A stretch of 64,000 bases of DNA, from the IMG/VR virus record IMGVR_UViG_3300044712_001462, positions 124,001-188,000 of that record. One strand, 5' to 3'. A program made the translations under genes and the position numbers. Below the pieces are notes generated by a model. That model saw only the letters and a list, made by a program, of their open reading frames with translations, ran no database searches and was not told the origin of the DNA. Origin of the DNA: a virus. How positions within the stretch are numbered: position 1 is the first letter of the stretch; the number at the start of each line of letters is the position of its first letter. Positions 1,960 through 24,956 of the stretch are shown one piece after another.

Positions 1960-1983
1960 AAAGTAATCCTCTAAGAGGGTAAA

Positions 1984-2054
1984 GCCGACGACTGGATTCG
2001 AACCAGTGTAAACTGATTTACAAAAACAGCGCCTAGCCACTCAGCCACGTCGGC
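1984..2054 (-). tRNA. tRNA, probably Thr (anticodon UGU)
   Basis: A 71-nt cloverleaf fits well: acceptor GCCGACG/CGTCGGC (7/7), a 3-bp D stem with GG in the loop, T stem ACTGG/CCAGT with loop TTCGAAT, and a 5-nt variable loop. The anticodon loop TTTGTAA gives UGU (threonine), and acceptor GCCGAC matches bacterial tRNA-Thr. The anticodon stem has a U-U mismatch at 30:40. CCA is not encoded. It sits just after a terminator and a TACAAT box (2063-2068). Confidence 0.85.
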
Positions 2055-17603: not shown

Positions 17604-18787
17604 GCAGCTTCAGCCGTCTCAGTCTCCTTGTCAGAGGGCTCCTCAGCCGGGACCGGGTCAGGTCGCAACACCTTTCTTCGGGTCGTCTCAGAAGACATAC
17701 CCATGATCGAGGTGAACAATTCATCCATGCGTCCCAATACGAACTCACGCTGCGTCCCATCTTTCCGCAAACGATTCGCTACCGTCGTAGCATCCTCGCC
17801 TACCCCTTTCAGAACGTTGTGGAGCTCTTCGAACTGGGCCCCAATCTGGCGACCATTCAAGATGCCAAACGGCTCAATCTTCGACTTGTACTCCTCAATC
17901 GCTTTGAAGACGCGCTCAATCACGCCATCCTTAAACGACTTTTGCGTACCATCCTGCCAGCCGCGGATCGAAGACACCATCTGCTGCAAACCCATCGCCA
18001 TCGCTTCTTCGATCAACTCCGCCTGCTTCTCAGCGACTTCGGTAAATTGCGCATTCAGTCGCGCCTGTTGTCGCCGGTATTCAGCCGGGTTCACCGCCTT
18101 CAAATACTCCGGCAACTCGAAGTTGTAGGTCTCAAAGCCCACGCCGATCTCCTGGTGGAGCCGTTCAGACGTCGGGTAATCCGACTCGTCATGCAACTCT
18201 CGGAGACGCTCCCGACACGTCGCCATGACTTCTGACCAGTTATTAGCCAGCTCATCAATAGCCTGCCGGAAGTCTGAGATCAGATCGTTGATCTCATCCA
18301 GGAACACACGCACTTCCTCATTCTGATCCTGTTCGGTCTCCCCGCGGACACCAAACAAGCGCACCCCATCTTCGGGGTACTTGAGGGTTTTCGATTGCCA
18401 GTACTTGATGAGCTTGGCCTTGGCCACCTGAACCGCGTGAATCGAAGGATGCTTCGCATACAACACTTTAGTAAAGCGGAGATGCGAGGGATCGCAGTCC
18501 ACGCTGCCAGCCAGCTTATGCGCTGCATCACCCTTAATCTTCCGGCTCTTACTCAGGTCATTGAACTTCAACCGGAAAGCTCGGGCGACTGCCTTAATGG
18601 TCTGCCCAGCTTCACGATAGCGCTCACGCTGTACCGCACGATCTTCTGCTGGAGGCAGATCCGCCAGCATCTTATCCACCTGCTCTTTGGTCAGGTGCTT
18701 CGTTGTCGTCTTCTTCTTTTTCTTCGACGACTTCTTCCCCACGTGCTGCTTAAGCTTCTGTAACAATTCAGGAGAGATACTTGCCAT
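17600..18787 (-). CDS. DUF3150-like protein paired with AAA+ ATPase
   Basis: The 395-residue protein has a Lys-rich N-terminus (KKSSKKKKKTTTKH), a helical core with W..V...CRERL..L and DYPTSERLHQEIGVGFETY, and a long C-terminal helical region. This resembles DUF3150 proteins known from phages, but the match is by eye. Its ATG overlaps the ATPase stop (TAATG), so the two are coupled and probably work together, perhaps as substrate adaptor and motor. The acidic tail ends at a promoter. Confidence 0.6.
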   Translation of the reverse strand: MASISPELLQKLKQHVGKKSSKKKKKTTTKHLTKEQVDKMLADLPPAEDRAVQRERYREAGQTIKAVARAFRLKFNDLSKSRKIKGDAAHKLAGSVDCDPSHLRFTKVLYAKHPSIHAVQVAKAKLIKYWQSKTLKYPEDGVRLFGVRGETEQDQNEEVRVFLDEINDLISDFRQAIDELANNWSEVMATCRERLRELHDESDYPTSERLHQEIGVGFETYNFELPEYLKAVNPAEYRRQQARLNAQFTEVAEKQAELIEEAMAMGLQQMVSSIRGWQDGTQKSFKDGVIERVFKAIEEYKSKIEPFGILNGRQIGAQFEELHNVLKGVGEDATTVANRLRKDGTQREFVLGRMDELFTSIMGMSSETTRRKVLRPDPVPAEEPSDKETETAEAA

Positions 18788-21700
18788 TAGTTAACATTGG
18801 GTCGAACTACCGACCGCCTCTTACCTCCGCCAGTGATGTCTGACACGCTGACCACTTGTTTCGCTCCTACATCGTAAAGCCCCGGAGCTGAGGCGTTCAA
18901 ACATCGTCCAGAGGCCCAGGCTCGCAGATCCTGCAGTTTGGTATCTGCCATTCGAGTGACAGGTACCACCTGCTTCGCAGCTTCGTCCAGAGAAACCTCA
19001 CGAATTGCCGCTAGGCGACAGCACGCCTTAATTTCAGCACCCGTCCAGCCCTCACTCAGCGTAAGGAGACTGTGCTTCACCTTGTCTGTCCGCGACTCCG
19101 CATGGCCATACAGATGCAAGTAGATCTGCCAAATAGCCAGGCGCTCTTCCTCTGTGGGAACATCCACAAAGAACACCGCATCAAAACGCTCCGCCCGAGA
19201 GAATTCTGGTGGGAGCATCGAGATGTTGTTGCAATTATGAACCACAACCCCAGACGCCATAAACGAGTGATGGGGCTCCTCAATAACCACATCGTAAACA
19301 GTCTGCTCACCAAGCGGAGAGGGTTCAACAGACACCACACTGACCCACTTCTGAGACCAAATACGTCGAACCTGCTCCAGCTCGTCTGCAATTTCGCGAG
19401 CCGCAGACTCGGACATCTTGGCAACATAGTGATCTACAATCACCTGCCACAACTCCGCCGTATCCGCCGATATTAGCGGAGTGTACTGCCTGTAGTTTGG
19501 CAACACCGATGTATAGCGACCAGCCGCTTTTAAAATAATCTCCAAACAATCATGCATTCCCGGAACACTCCGAACTCCATCTCCGTTAACCTCCTTAGGC
19601 CTACATATCCGACTTTTCTTGTCCGGGTGCTGAAACGGAATGAGCTGTGCAAACCGATGACAAGACTCCGAATCGCGGATACTCAGCTTAGTTACATCCT
19701 TGCGAGGAAGCTTTCGCGAAATCGTTGCAACAGAACCTTGAATATCAAATCTCGTTAAGAGAAGTCGAAGCTGGTCGATCATGACTGGGCTAGTTACCGC
19801 AATCTCAATTCGCCCACGTTTACTGATATAGCCCTCGGCGTCAAAAAGACCCGCTATAAAGGACAACACCACATCCTTGTCCGGAGATGCCATTACATCT
19901 TGAGGTATTTCTCGCACACATTGCAGGCATAAGATGTCTGGAAAATACTGCTCAAACCAATCTAACAGAAGACGACGATCCAGATAGATGTAGTACGACT
20001 GTGCTTTTGGACGCTTATCAATAACCTTTGGCTCTACTCCAAACAAACTACGAATCAGCGAGCATAGGTGCTGAGTCAGACCTGCGCTAAACTCAGATAA
20101 TTGAAGCCGATGGGCCTTCCTGTTTAAAAGCTTACCTTTACCCCCGTCCCCGCAGCAAAATCCAAGAAAATACGCCAATTCTGCTGTTAAGTACTCTGGT
20201 TGTTTAACAGGTTTCTGTCGGGATCGTGCTGGTAACGGCAGATACCGTTTTGCGGGTTTTGATCCCACTGGAGCTTTAGCTTTAGAAAGCAATAGATCAT
20301 CAGCAGTAAGATGCTTCGCTTCTTTCTCAGCTATTTTACCGTTTTGAAAGACAAAGAATCTGTGATCAGGCGTTGCATCGATGAACCCAGCTGACGTACG
20401 TATGCGTAGCATGTCGCGAATACCGCGGCTGTACACTAGCCCGGAGCCAGATACCCACTGACCAGTCTCGTCATCCACACTCAGGAACGTTTCACGTTGG
20501 CCTACAAGCGACTCAAGTTTACAGATACGCCCGTCCGCCAACTCAACAAGTGTTCCACCGGCCAAACACGTACCGATGAAAAACACATCTGACGTATGGT
20601 CGTTCAACCAACTGAGTAACTTACCAAAAATGCGATCACCAGAGCCGCCATCTGTCATCGATGATGACTGACCTGCTCCGGACAGTGCTTTCTCGATTTC
20701 CACTTGTGTTACGAGATACCCGTTTCCGGTACCTCTCTTACGGTTACCCGTAAGGTCAGACTATTTCATCCTGTCGCTGCGACAGGGCCCCCGTTTCGAG
20801 ATCACTTGATCTCTACTTCCTTTCGGAATAGTCGTTGAACGTTTCAGTCATAGACTGACTTCGCTGCAGATAATCCAGGCTAGTGGACTTCCCTGCAATT
20901 AGAGGGCTTTGCATCGGCATGTCACCACGCCGAGGGACTAACGTTAATCCACAAAGAGAATGCACGGCTGCATAGCATCAGCCAGCTTCAGAGCCATCCG
21001 GACATTGGCATCCGTTTCACCCTGAAACTTCGATCTGAGTGCGCCCATATCCATCATGAGCACTTTGCGCTGGGTCTCATTACCCATCGCCTTAATGATC
21101 GCACTCTTACCGGCACCAGGCACACCAAGGAGCAGCATACCACGAGGCTGAAGCAGAGGATTATCTCGTCGCCGAAGTAGCTGCTTCGAGAACTCCTTGA
21201 ATTGCTGCAACCCACCCAACTGCGCATAAGTGTCTGTGCCTTTGTAGATCTCCAGTACACCGCGCTTCTTGAGATCCTGAGCCTTCAGGTCCCAGATCTC
21301 ATTGGGATCGAGCTTACCGGTCTTCGCCAGAGACAAACTCAGAGCATCCTCGAAACCACGTCGAGACAATCCCGCCGCAGCATCTAAGACCAGTCGTTTG
21401 TCGTCATCCGTTTTAGGTAACTCCGTCTCCGCACAGATGTTCTTAGCGATCGACCAGAGTTGTTCCTTACCTGGCAGCTCGTGCTCCAGGATTACAAAGT
21501 CCTTCTCTAGCTCTCGAGGGATCTCAATCATCGGAGAGAGCACAATGGCGCAGCAGGAGACCTGGCCCTCCGCCTTACAATCCGTTACCGCGTTCTGCAG
21601 AGCCTGCATGATGGGTAGGTTGTGAACCAGCTGCTGGTGATGGAAATTCTTGAGAATCCAGATGACGTGAGTAGCACCCTCGCTACCCTGGGACTCTTGA

Positions 21701-21981
21701 GCCTGCCGAAGGGCCAGAGACATCACAGGCATGTCCTGAACCAACGGGAGAGGCTTCATCTGGTAGTTAGTATTCTTCGAAATGAAATCTCTTAGCGTCT
21801 CAGCTGTATCTCGGGGGCATTTGAGGCCCGCGGCGAAGTCCCACACAATGACCGGCCATTGTCTCTCAGCACATACCGGTACGATCTCTGCGATAGCATC
21901 CCCAAACTCATAAGTCTCAACCCAAAGGCCGGTGAAACCGGCTCGCAAATACTGCCGTACTTGCTCCCCAAGTGCTGGCAC
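18787..21981 (-). CDS. Ycf46-like AAA+ ATPase, interrupted by a group I intron and an intein
   Basis: Coding parts are 21981-20947 (345 aa) and 20700-18787; the first codon is GTG. The host protein after splicing is about 537 aa. It has a Ycf46-type N-terminal domain (IVWDFAAGLK, about 45-54), Walker A GVPGAGKS (286-293), Walker B ILFVDE split by the intron after Asp 345, the FFIGT/CNN sensor region split by the intein, and an RFD arginine motif. ATPases of this kind act as chaperone-like motors; the substrate is unknown. It sits between DUF2997 and DUF3150-like genes. Splicing signals in both elements look intact, so the protein is probably active. Confidence 0.85.
19234..20568 (-). mobile_element. 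Intein with LAGLIDADG homing endonuclease, 445 aa
   Basis: The intein begins with Cys 1 (CLAGGTLVELADGR), has the block B histidine in ATPDHRFFV, two DOD endonuclease motifs (FLGFCCGDG and IAGLFDAEG) and ends VVVHN before the extein Cys. All residues for standard splicing are present, and both DOD motifs keep their acidic residues, so homing may be active. Insertion is between FFIGT and CNN of the ATPase sensor region, only 132 bases from the intron site. Confidence 0.92.
20701..20946 (-). ncRNA. Group I self-splicing intron, 246 nt, no ORF
   Basis: Exon 1 ends GTGGAT and exon 2 resumes GAAATCGAG, restoring FVDEIEKAL. The intron starts after a U and ends in G (20701), as group I introns do. 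The R element GTTCAACGACTATT (20829-20840 core) and matching S element GATGAAATAGTCTG (20757-20770) form P7, and extra hairpins lie between them. No endonuclease is encoded, so it is a minimal ribozyme, possibly mobilised in trans. Subgroup IA is likely but not proven. Confidence 0.9.
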
Positions 21982-23447: not shown

Positions 23448-23729
23448 TTACACTTTGTATCCGCGTTTCCTCAATTCCGCGTCAGCATGTACCACGCTGC
23501 CAGGGATACTAGTAGAGCGCATGGGCTCAGGGCGCGTCGAGGTTGCCTCAAAAAAACACTGGAGAGCGCGCCTGCTCGTAAAAATCCGTCCACCTATGCG
23601 CAGAGTATCTAACAGAACCCCGCGATAACCGACGGTGGCCCAGCGCCAGACTGTCGAAGAAGATGTTTTCCCAGGTAACGCCTTCGCTGCCTCAGAGAGC
23701 GAAAGCACGTCTTCGTCGTCGAATTTCAA
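23448..23729 (-). CDS. DUF1580 protein, probable excisionase-like DNA-binding protein
   Basis: The 93-residue protein shows LSLSEAAKALPG, TVWRWATVGYRG and a C-terminal FTSRRALQCFFEA, the pattern of DUF1580, a helix-turn-helix family found largely in Planctomycetota next to integrases. The start is TTG behind GGAGGAA, overlapping the integrase end by four bases. It likely directs excision or regulates integrase, by analogy with MerR-like excisionases. Confidence 0.8.
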   Translation of the reverse strand: MKFDDEDVLSLSEAAKALPGKTSSSTVWRWATVGYRGVLLDTLRIGGRIFTSRRALQCFFEATSTRPEPMRSTSIPGSVVHADAELRKRGYKV

Positions 23730-24919
23730 CCAAATTCCTCCGCAATTGATCGAGCCAGCTTCAAGTTCTTCTCCGCGTAGATTTCGCTGGTGCGAATATG
23801 CTTGTGCCCTAACAACACCTGGCTGCCTTCTACCCCGTACTTTTCACGTACGCGAGTAGCAAGGTTGTGCCGGAGCTGATTAGGAGCCCACGGAGTTACT
23901 CCTGCTGTGATACACGCTCGCTGAACTGCGCGCCGATAGGAATTGTGGTCATAGTGTGTCCCAGGTGATTTCACACGTCTTATCTTGCGGTTAGAGCCTG
24001 GTTTGTTACCGCACGATACGGGAGTAGTGCGCCGCTTATGTCGGGCGGCTAAACGCTGCTCTTCCGCCTCCCGCGGTGAAAAGCAGTATTCCAAGGGTGA
24101 TCGTTGCAAAAAGCGACGGAGTATTTTCTGCGCCCGTCGCCCTATCGAAATTTCCCTGCGAGCATCTTCCTGGTGTGCCAGCTTGTGATCAGGTGGCACG
24201 TAGAGCCACACGGGATCTTTCATGGAAATATCACACGGCCTGAGAAGACAGATCTCCATCGGCCTCATCCCTGTCCAGTACTGCAAACGAACCATCTGCG
24301 CCACCACTTTGGGCAGGTATGGAATCGTCTGTCTCAAGTCTTTCTCAGGCACCGGCAAAATCTTTTCGGTCTCCCTGGCCTTCGTCAGCCCTTTTCTTAA
24401 CCCTTCGAGGGTATTGAGATGAGCATGCGTATTCTTCTCTACCAGCCCAGCGCTCTCTGCCCACTTGAAGAGCCGCTTCACACAACCGATATACCGGTTC
24501 ACCGTGGAGCGCGAGAGCTTGCCTTCGCGGACTAACTGGGACTGGAGATCTCGGAGAGACCGAGCATCAAAGCGATCAGCTAACGTGTGCCCATAGTATT
24601 TGAGCAGCACATCGTTAGCCGCCTTGATTACCGCTACCTGGGAGGATAGCTTCCCCCTCTTAGACTGGTAACGGATATCCACGAACTCGTCCAGATAGCG
24701 CAGGACGAGGTGGTTGACGAACAGCGGTTGAGACCTCTCTTTGGCCACCACCGCGGACCCAGGATGCACCTGCCTCCCAGCGAGATGGTCGGCAATGAGC
24801 TGCGTACCCTGCGCCTCTGCAGAGCTCTTTTCCCGGCCTAAATAAATTCGCTTTCCAGCGATGTGAACGTAGAACTGACCGGTTGCGGCATGCAGACGAA
24901 CTTGGGGTTTGCGTGGCAT
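23726..24919 (-). CDS. int: Tyrosine recombinase (phage integrase)
   Basis: The 397-residue protein starts MPRKPQVRLHAATGQFYVHI, typical of planctomycete integrases, has a SAM-like core-binding domain (about 65-160) and catalytic residues Arg 219, Arg 350, His 372 and Tyr 381 (EIYAEKN). The HxxR motif reads NQLR, with Asn for the first His, as in some relatives. It would join phage and host DNA at att sites. A longer frame upstream starts inside the palindrome; ATG 24919 is preferred. Confidence 0.92.
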   Translation of the reverse strand: MPRKPQVRLHAATGQFYVHIAGKRIYLGREKSSAEAQGTQLIADHLAGRQVHPGSAVVAKERSQPLFVNHLVLRYLDEFVDIRYQSKRGKLSSQVAVIKAANDVLLKYYGHTLADRFDARSLRDLQSQLVREGKLSRSTVNRYIGCVKRLFKWAESAGLVEKNTHAHLNTLEGLRKGLTKARETEKILPVPEKDLRQTIPYLPKVVAQMVRLQYWTGMRPMEICLLRPCDISMKDPVWLYVPPDHKLAHQEDARREISIGRRAQKILRRFLQRSPLEYCFSPREAEEQRLAARHKRRTTPVSCGNKPGSNRKIRRVKSPGTHYDHNSYRRAVQRACITAGVTPWAPNQLRHNLATRVREKYGVEGSQVLLGHKHIRTSEIYAEKNLKLARSIAEEFG

Positions 24920-24930
24920 GGCTGACCTTT

Positions 24931-24956
24931 TTAGTTGGTAGTCGACTACCAACTAA
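24931..24956. repeat. 26-bp perfect palindrome upstream of int
   Basis: TTAGTTGGTAGTC is followed by its exact reverse complement, 12 bases upstream of the integrase ATG. Each half contains AGTTGGTAGT, which recurs twice at 25187-25207 beyond the tRNA-like sequence. Likely an integrase arm site or an autoregulatory operator. Confidence 0.8.

What the first reader, a model, noticed from the sequence alone, without database searches (positions are those of the whole stretch)
20701..20946. Compact ORF-less group I intron splitting Walker B
R and S elements, the U before the 5' site and the terminal G are all present in 246 nt. Without its own endonuclease, its spread may depend on the intein endonuclease next door, whose target would lie near the intron site (a possible collaborative homing system).
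Basis: partly seen in the sequence, partly recalled or inferred. Interest (0 to 1): 0.7.

Follow-up and report, generated by a model that had tools for sequence, protein, structure and literature searches.

The report
Stripped-down jumping intron in phage ATPase
A large, probably Planctomycete-infecting phage carries a 246-base self-splicing RNA intron exactly inside the catalytic motif of an ATPase gene; cousins of this intron sit at the very same spot in other phages and carry a DNA-cutting gene that this copy has most likely lost.

Summary
Minus-strand 20946..20701 is a complete group I intron (Rfam RF00028, 71 bits) between the D and E codons of Walker B in an AAA+ ATPase gene; the U·G pair at the 5' site, R/S elements, terminal G and exon join all hold. 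The interpretation changes. Searches of viral contigs found 11 other contigs with an intron at the identical codon junction, and in all of them the P8 loop holds an HNH endonuclease gene (one is cut off inside it). In the window P8 closes on three bases. HNH-bearing introns lie on both sides of the window's intron in the intron tree, so the simplest history is loss of its own HNH. The family is mobile: at least four separate changes in one phage clade, introns 92-98% alike where exons are 74-78% alike, and a synonymous footprint (GTGGAT|GAA in 5 of 5 carriers, 1 of 28 non-carriers). The neighbouring LAGLIDADG intein is real, 132 exon bases away, and found nowhere else; no relative carries both. 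Dependence on the intein endonuclease is possible but unsupported. Ordinary in kind; a good natural case of endonuclease loss, with a testable intron-intein pair.

The parts
20701..20946 (-). ORF-less group I intron, 246 nt
   Evidence: RF00028 71 bits; boundaries shared with six complete same-site introns
20947..21981 (-). Exon 1 of the AAA+ ATPase gene (345 aa, Walker A to ...CILFVD)
   Evidence: Pfam AAA 7.8e-13, residues 282-345; PHROG 8638, function unknown
20569..20700 (-). Exon segment of 132 nt between intron and intein (EIEKAL...FFIGT)
   Evidence: tblastn with the spliced protein; sequence
19234..20568 (-). Intein, 445 aa, inserted in the sensor-1 motif (FFIGT|C...HN|CNN), LAGLIDADG endonuclease
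   Evidence: Pfam Intein_splicing 3.3e-13 and LAGLIDADG_3 4.2e-14; extent; C1, TPDH, C-terminal HN and +1 C read from the sequence
18787..19233 (-). Rest of the AAA+ gene with stop codon
   Evidence: tblastn
20935..20950 (-). P1: exon GGAU|U with internal guide AGUCC; U-G pair 20947/20938
   Evidence: invariant in 6 of 6
20914..20933 (-). P2 hairpin
   Evidence: 5 of 8 pairs with two-sided changes
20865..20897 (-). P4-P5
   Evidence: outer and inner pairs of P5 not kept in relatives
20787..20907 (-). P3 (20907-20902 with 20792-20787), spanning P4 to P7.2
20759..20833 (-). P7 (20833-20829 with 20763-20759), guanosine-binding helix; P7.1 and P7.2 hairpins at 20828-20817 and 20813-20798
20770..20786 (-). 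P8, 7 bp closed by CAG (20779-20777); in relatives this loop holds the HNH gene
20713..20754 (-). P9 and P9.1 hairpins
   Evidence: 8 of 15 pairs with two-sided changes
20947..20952 (-). Exon side of the synonymous footprint, GTGGAT; the other side is GAA at 20700-20698

Best explanation
This is a functional group I intron of the phage type with P7.1/P7.2, an ORF-less member of a mobile intron family dedicated to one codon junction (D|E of Walker B) of a phage AAA+ ATPase gene. It removes itself from the mRNA by the usual guanosine-started two-step reaction and joins VD to EIEKAL, so the ATPase is unharmed; a stop codon (UAA) directly at the intron start ends translation of unspliced RNA. The family spreads by homing with an HNH endonuclease encoded in the P8 loop. 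The window's copy most likely arrived by that route and later lost the HNH gene cleanly, leaving a closed P8; it now persists by vertical descent, or moves only when a nuclease acts in trans. Shown by sequence: intron, boundaries, conserved structure, same-site family, HNH in P8 of the others, repeated gain or loss. Inferred: splicing, HNH cutting the empty site, loss rather than primary absence, present immobility.
For: Intron and ends. Pair conservation: 26 of 74 pairs with two-sided changes. Same-site introns with HNH in P8: L115, L117, L121, L122, L146, L162 complete and L147 cut by the contig end inside the HNH gene; L248 and L249 (one identical sequence in two contigs), L250, L251, L252 in more distant ATPases. 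HNH: Pfam HNH 1.3e-6, PHROG HNH endonuclease 5.8e-11. Mobility: the label 'intron' needs at least 4 changes on well-supported branches of the exon-1 tree of 68 rows; intron cores 92-98% alike between four lineages whose exon 1 DNA is 74-78% alike. Loss: in the intron tree of 10, the window joins the clade plus L248 (100/99), while L250-L252, also with HNH, lie outside.
Against: The loss inference rests on a midpoint root and 10 introns; the window branches first within its group (84/80 for the rest). No remnant of HNH coding sequence is left, and no HNH match in the record, so loss is not shown directly. P10 is weaker in the window (G-U, A-U) than in relatives (GAA with UUC), read from the alignment. 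No splicing data. Raised identity of exon flanks beyond the junction codons, expected after recent homing, was not seen in the relatives.
Confidence: 0.78

Rival explanations
1. Collaborative homing with the intein: the intein LAGLIDADG enzyme cuts intein-less alleles, and repair copies intein and intron together over the 132 intervening bases.
For: ORF-less intron and intein with both LAGLIDADG motifs in one gene; the intein is the only homing nuclease found in the record among four families tried. Free-standing nucleases doing this are in print (passages of PMC10448857, PMC3984707, PMC2988022), and co-conversion of flanks is established.
Against: No relative carries both elements: at the intein site 160 of the 162 non-window loci are readable and all 160 are empty. 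The known relatives carry their own HNH. The intein point lies 132 bases away, so its target would not be the intron site as in strict collaborative homing. Identity of the protein segment between the two elements is within the range of other distant rows.
Confidence: 0.1
2. Primary ORF-less intron: the window shows the older state and an HNH gene entered P8 in the ancestors of the others.
For: The P8 loop of the window is a clean 3-base loop with no remnant; such invasions are a published route to composite mobile introns (passages).
Against: Homologous HNH proteins (44-50% identical to that of L122 in L248, L250-L252) sit in the same loop in both halves of the intron tree, with the window between them; this needs two separate entries by related HNH genes into the same loop.
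Confidence: 0.15
3. Still mobile in trans: HNH enzymes of same-site introns in co-infecting phages, or a free-standing HNH, cut the empty site and the ORF-less intron is copied in.
For: Same footprint GTGGAT|GAA in the window as in the HNH carriers of the clade; a free-standing HNH, 43% identical to the intron HNH, lies directly downstream of an uninterrupted ATPase gene in L163.
Against: No such gene was found in the window's record (one search has no positive control, one search has). The footprint could also be kept by selection for P1.
Confidence: 0.2
4. Degenerate intron that no longer splices, so the ATPase is truncated after VD.
For: A stop codon follows the 5' site at once; no RNA data.
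Against: All core helices are kept with compensatory changes between the window and relatives; exon 2 remains open and conserved.
Confidence: 0.04

Closest known systems
HNH-bearing same-site introns of IMG/VR contigs (L115, L117, L121, L122, L146, L162, L248, L250-L252)
   Same: Same codon junction, same flanking codons GAT|GAA, same P1/P7/P7.1/P7.2/P9 layout; 66-68% identical cores in the nearest group
   Different: They carry an HNH gene in P8 (809-911 nt in all); the window has none. L250-L252 lack P2 and have a longer P5
Phage group I introns with loop-encoded endonucleases (Bastillevirinae, T4 and relatives)
   Same: Phage protein-gene introns with loop-encoded HNH or other nucleases (passages of PMC11878797; PMC2988022)
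   Different: Host gene and site: the two searches on group I introns with Walker B or with AAA ATPase listed no paper on this site (listings only)
[quoted passage not shown]
   Same: ORF-less group I intron with a homing endonuclease close by (passage of PMC10448857)
   Different: There the enzyme is free-standing and cuts at the intron insertion site; here it lies inside an intein whose insertion point is 132 bases away
crAss-like phages with many introns and inteins
   Same: Introns and inteins in core phage genes (passages of PMC7886860)
   Different: No case of an ORF-less intron and an intein within 132 bases was seen in the passages read

Membership tests
Group I intron | Match to RF00028 above the gathering score | tested here: met
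   71.0 against 50 bits
Group I intron | P3-P8 core with P7/P3 pseudoknot supported by covariation | tested here: met
   97.7% of cells paired, 26 of 74 pairs with two-sided changes; P1 and P7 do not vary and so say nothing
Group I intron | U-G pair at the 5' site and terminal G | tested here: met
   20947/20938 and 20701; 6 of 6 in the alignment
Group I intron | Self-splicing | not testable with these tools
   needs RNA
Subgroup IA (label recalled) | P7.1 and P7.2 between P7 and P3' | tested here: met
   two covarying hairpins; the subgroup name comes from memory, from no call
Mobile (homing) group I intron | Presence/absence at one site across relatives with repeated gain or loss | tested here: met
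   at least 4 changes in the relatives
Mobile (homing) group I intron | Own endonuclease gene in the window's copy | tested here: not met
   P8 loop of 3 bases
Mobile (homing) group I intron | Co-conversion of flanking exon | tested here: inconclusive
   junction codons differ sharply between carriers and non-carriers, but identity of flanks beyond is not raised
Collaborative homing | Nearby endonuclease whose target is the intron insertion site | tested here: inconclusive
   a LAGLIDADG intein lies 132 bases away; its target cannot be tested
Collaborative homing | The two elements are inherited together | tested here: not met
   no relative with both
LAGLIDADG intein | Splicing and endonuclease domains | tested here: met
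   Intein_splicing 50.2 against 35.8 bits; LAGLIDADG_3 53 against 22.5 bits

The most novel reading that the evidence does not exclude
Endonuclease turnover between two kinds of splicing element: after the intein entered the same gene, its LAGLIDADG enzyme could carry both elements by co-conversion, the intron's own HNH gene became dispensable and was purged, and intron and intein now home as one unit.
Probability: 0.08. Interest if true: 0.75.

Novelty: new member of a known kind. Interest (0 to 1): 0.48.

Why it matters
The window plus its relatives give a natural series at one codon junction: empty site, intron with HNH, intron without HNH beside an intein, and a possible post-loss scar. 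That makes the proposed homing cycle (gain, endonuclease decay, loss) and the idea of endonuclease turnover testable in one gene. It also shows how a homing intron has specialised on the Walker B codons of a phage ATPase, including a guide sequence that follows the exon (GGAU with AGUCC, AUCGAU with GUCGAU).

Tried and rejected
A profile of seven distant ATPases had no stretch fit for a collection scan; one without the permuted member worked, but one of its two patterns straddles the intron site, which hid interrupted genes; the exon-1 profile removed that bias. A whole-record search of 47 of the 79 contigs found only one weak, sub-cut-off intron match (24.3 bits) and inteins in three records, none of which I traced to the ATPase gene; 32 contigs, mostly short, were left out. 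A junction pattern over viral contigs gave 66 stretches; only the seven contigs already known had the ATPase gene there, the rest are taken as chance. The intein has no relative in the phage collection or in a viral-contig scan (exact 8-residue seeds, so near relatives only); PDB gives weak matches to other inteins. Joint transfer of intron and intein as a block: no raised identity. Long co-conversion tracts in relatives: not seen, tested on four carriers against random quartets of 28 non-carriers. A first drawing of P6 was wrong by register and was corrected.

Structure prediction was not run: the spliced ATPase is not a letter-for-letter window protein, and the question turns on RNA and distribution. 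The ATPase matches in 129 phage records were not checked one by one for introns.

Full report
What is there. The window lies at 124001-188000 of a 224,528-base virus record. On the minus strand a gene for an AAA+ ATPase runs from 21981 to 18787. It is broken twice. Exon 1 (20947-21981) ends in ...CILFVD; a group I intron follows at 20946-20701; exon 2 resumes with EIEKALSG; 132 bases on, an intein of 445 residues (20568-19234) splits the sensor-1 motif FFIGT|CNN; the rest of the ATPase ends at 18787. Pfam finds AAA in exon 1, and Intein_splicing and LAGLIDADG_3 in the second open frame. PHROG 8638, of unknown function, matches both halves of the ATPase. I call the protein Ycf46-like from memory only; no call gave that name.

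The intron. RF00028 scores 71.0 bits over its whole length. The fold beats all of 200 shuffles. The 5' exon end GGAU pairs with AGUCC, with the U-G pair at 20947/20938; the intron ends in G20701. Hairpins P7.1 and P7.2 lie between P7 and P3', as in introns that I recall as subgroup IA. P8 is a 7-bp stem closed by CAG. P10 is weak in the window (G-U and A-U) and three pairs in the relatives (GAA with UUC); this is read from the alignment. A UAA codon directly follows the last exon codon, so ribosomes on unspliced RNA stop before the ribozyme.

Relatives and the intron site. Two profile scans of viral contigs, one single-protein scan and fetched phage records gave 165 sequences with a tblastn match to the spliced ATPase, three of which are the window itself. 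Of the other 162, 154 run through both sites, 6 are interrupted at exactly the intron site and run through the intein site, L147 is interrupted and then ends, and L155 ends before the site. The six introns are 809-814 nt and score 67-73 bits with RF00028; L147 scores 50.3. Scans overlap, so these are loci, not contigs; 112 distinct gene sequences remain after removal of duplicates among 152 mapped rows. The intein was found only in the window.

The HNH gene. In the six complete introns the P8 loop holds an open frame of about 186 residues, Pfam HNH 1.3e-6. In L122 its last codons overlap J8/7 and its stop lies in the 3' strand of P7. A scan with the HNH alignment found 14 loci. Besides the seven contigs above, L248 and L249 (identical sequence), L250, L251 and L252 have introns with HNH at the same D|E junction of more distant ATPases; of these Rfam passes its cut-off only for L248/L249 (55.1 bits); L250 has 41.1, L251 26.4, and L252 no match at E 0.1, so L252 is judged from its 90% identity to L251. 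L253 has a similar insert at another site of the gene; L254 has the HNH without the ATPase match. So 12 contigs including the window have an intron at this junction, and 11 have the HNH gene (L147 in part). All show GAT before the intron, and all whose 3' end is present show GAA after it.

Shared ancestry. The window's core is 66-68% identical to the clade introns. Across six sequences 26 of 74 pairs change on both sides, mean 5.7 in shuffles; most of these changes separate the window from the rest, so they are few independent comparisons. The guide sequence follows the exon: GGAU with AGUCC in the window and clade, AUCGAU with GUCGAU in L250 and L251. In a tree of ten introns the window joins the clade and L248 (100/99), all with P2 and a short P5; L250-L252 lie outside. 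HNH carriers are on both sides of the window, which favours loss of HNH in the window's line. The root is a midpoint and the set is small.

Mobility. On an exon-1 DNA tree of 68 distinct rows (the last 30 bases left out; two partial rows dropped; 5 distinct carriers besides the window) the intron needs at least 4 changes on well-supported branches, not counting the window. Intron cores are 92-98% alike between the four lineages, while exon 1 is 74-78% alike. In the 33-row clade all 5 carriers have GTGGAT|GAA; 27 of 28 non-carriers have GTC or GTT, GAC, GAG. The exception, L142, is sister to a carrier (100/99) and may be a scar of exact intron loss. Among 107 distinct non-carriers overall, 2 have GTGGAT|GAA. 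The window has it too. All three changes are synonymous, and GGAU is what P1 needs, so either co-conversion or selection for pairing explains it; flanks beyond the junction are not more alike than in random non-carriers, which speaks against long recent co-conversion tracts.

The intein as helper. Both LAGLIDADG motifs and the splicing residues are in place, read from the sequence. It is the only homing nuclease found in the record with LAGLIDADG_3, HNH, GIY-YIG and HNH_3; other nuclease families were not tried. The insertion point is 132 bases from the intron. Collaborative homing in print concerns free-standing enzymes that cut at the intron site (passages); PMC10448857 also proposes turnover, in which a new endonuclease replaces the purged intron one. 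That idea fits the window in outline, but no other allele with both elements, or with the intein alone, was found, and the segment between them shows no raised identity. I put joint homing at about one in ten.

Host. In bacterial genome contigs, 12 of 15 ATPase matches lie in bins titled as Planctomycetes or Pirellulales (several from the same bin); L257 is titled only 'bacterium', L269 Nitrospina, L270 a proteobacterium. A DUF1580 protein and an integrase lie upstream in the window. A Planctomycete host is an inference. All 14 of these loci that reach the intron site have it empty; L265 does not reach it.

Literature. Passages were read of PMC2814812, PMC10448857, PMC2988022, PMC3984707, PMC7886860, PMC3653736 and PMC11878797. 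Searches with Walker B and with AAA ATPase beside group I intron listed no paper whose title or shown abstract concerns this site; their texts were not read.

Verdict. A real, precisely drawn group I intron; an ORF-less member of a mobile, HNH-driven family specialised on one codon junction. New member of a known kind, with an unusual neighbour.

Noticed in passing
L007 2989-4584 (Tunturiibacter phage Tunturi_3), L163 4614-6224, also L165, L167, L168, L172, L173, L174: ATPases of this family in which the Walker B stretch (e.g. FLFIDEVEKAVAG) comes before Walker A (GVPGTGKS): a permuted AAA+ core, seen by pattern in 8 of 161 loci scanned (65 showed the usual order, the rest fitted neither pattern).
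   Followed up: partly
L163 6288-6689: Free-standing HNH gene, 43% identical to the intron HNH, directly downstream of an uninterrupted ATPase gene.
   Followed up: partly
L253 3774-4855: ATPase gene with an HNH-bearing insert at a different site, after ...SDG, and a second partial HNH copy.
   Followed up: no
L142, ATPase gene: No intron, yet the exon codons GTGGAT|GAA otherwise seen with the intron; possible scar of exact intron loss.
   Followed up: partly
L122 6134-6694 and relatives: The intron HNH protein has the same zinc-ribbon-like motif at both ends (CxxC...HMAKGLCxxCY and CxxC...HASKGLCxRC), flanking the HNH core.
   Followed up: no
window 23448-24952 (-): DUF1580 protein next to a phage integrase in a record of 224 kb; suggests a temperate phage of Planctomycetes.
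   Followed up: partly
window 1983-2054 (-): Single tRNA gene in the window, tRNA-Thr (TGT).
   Followed up: no
L163 3839-3907: Sub-threshold twister-P1 ribozyme match, 42.6 against 67.2 bits, E 4.5e-6.
   Followed up: no
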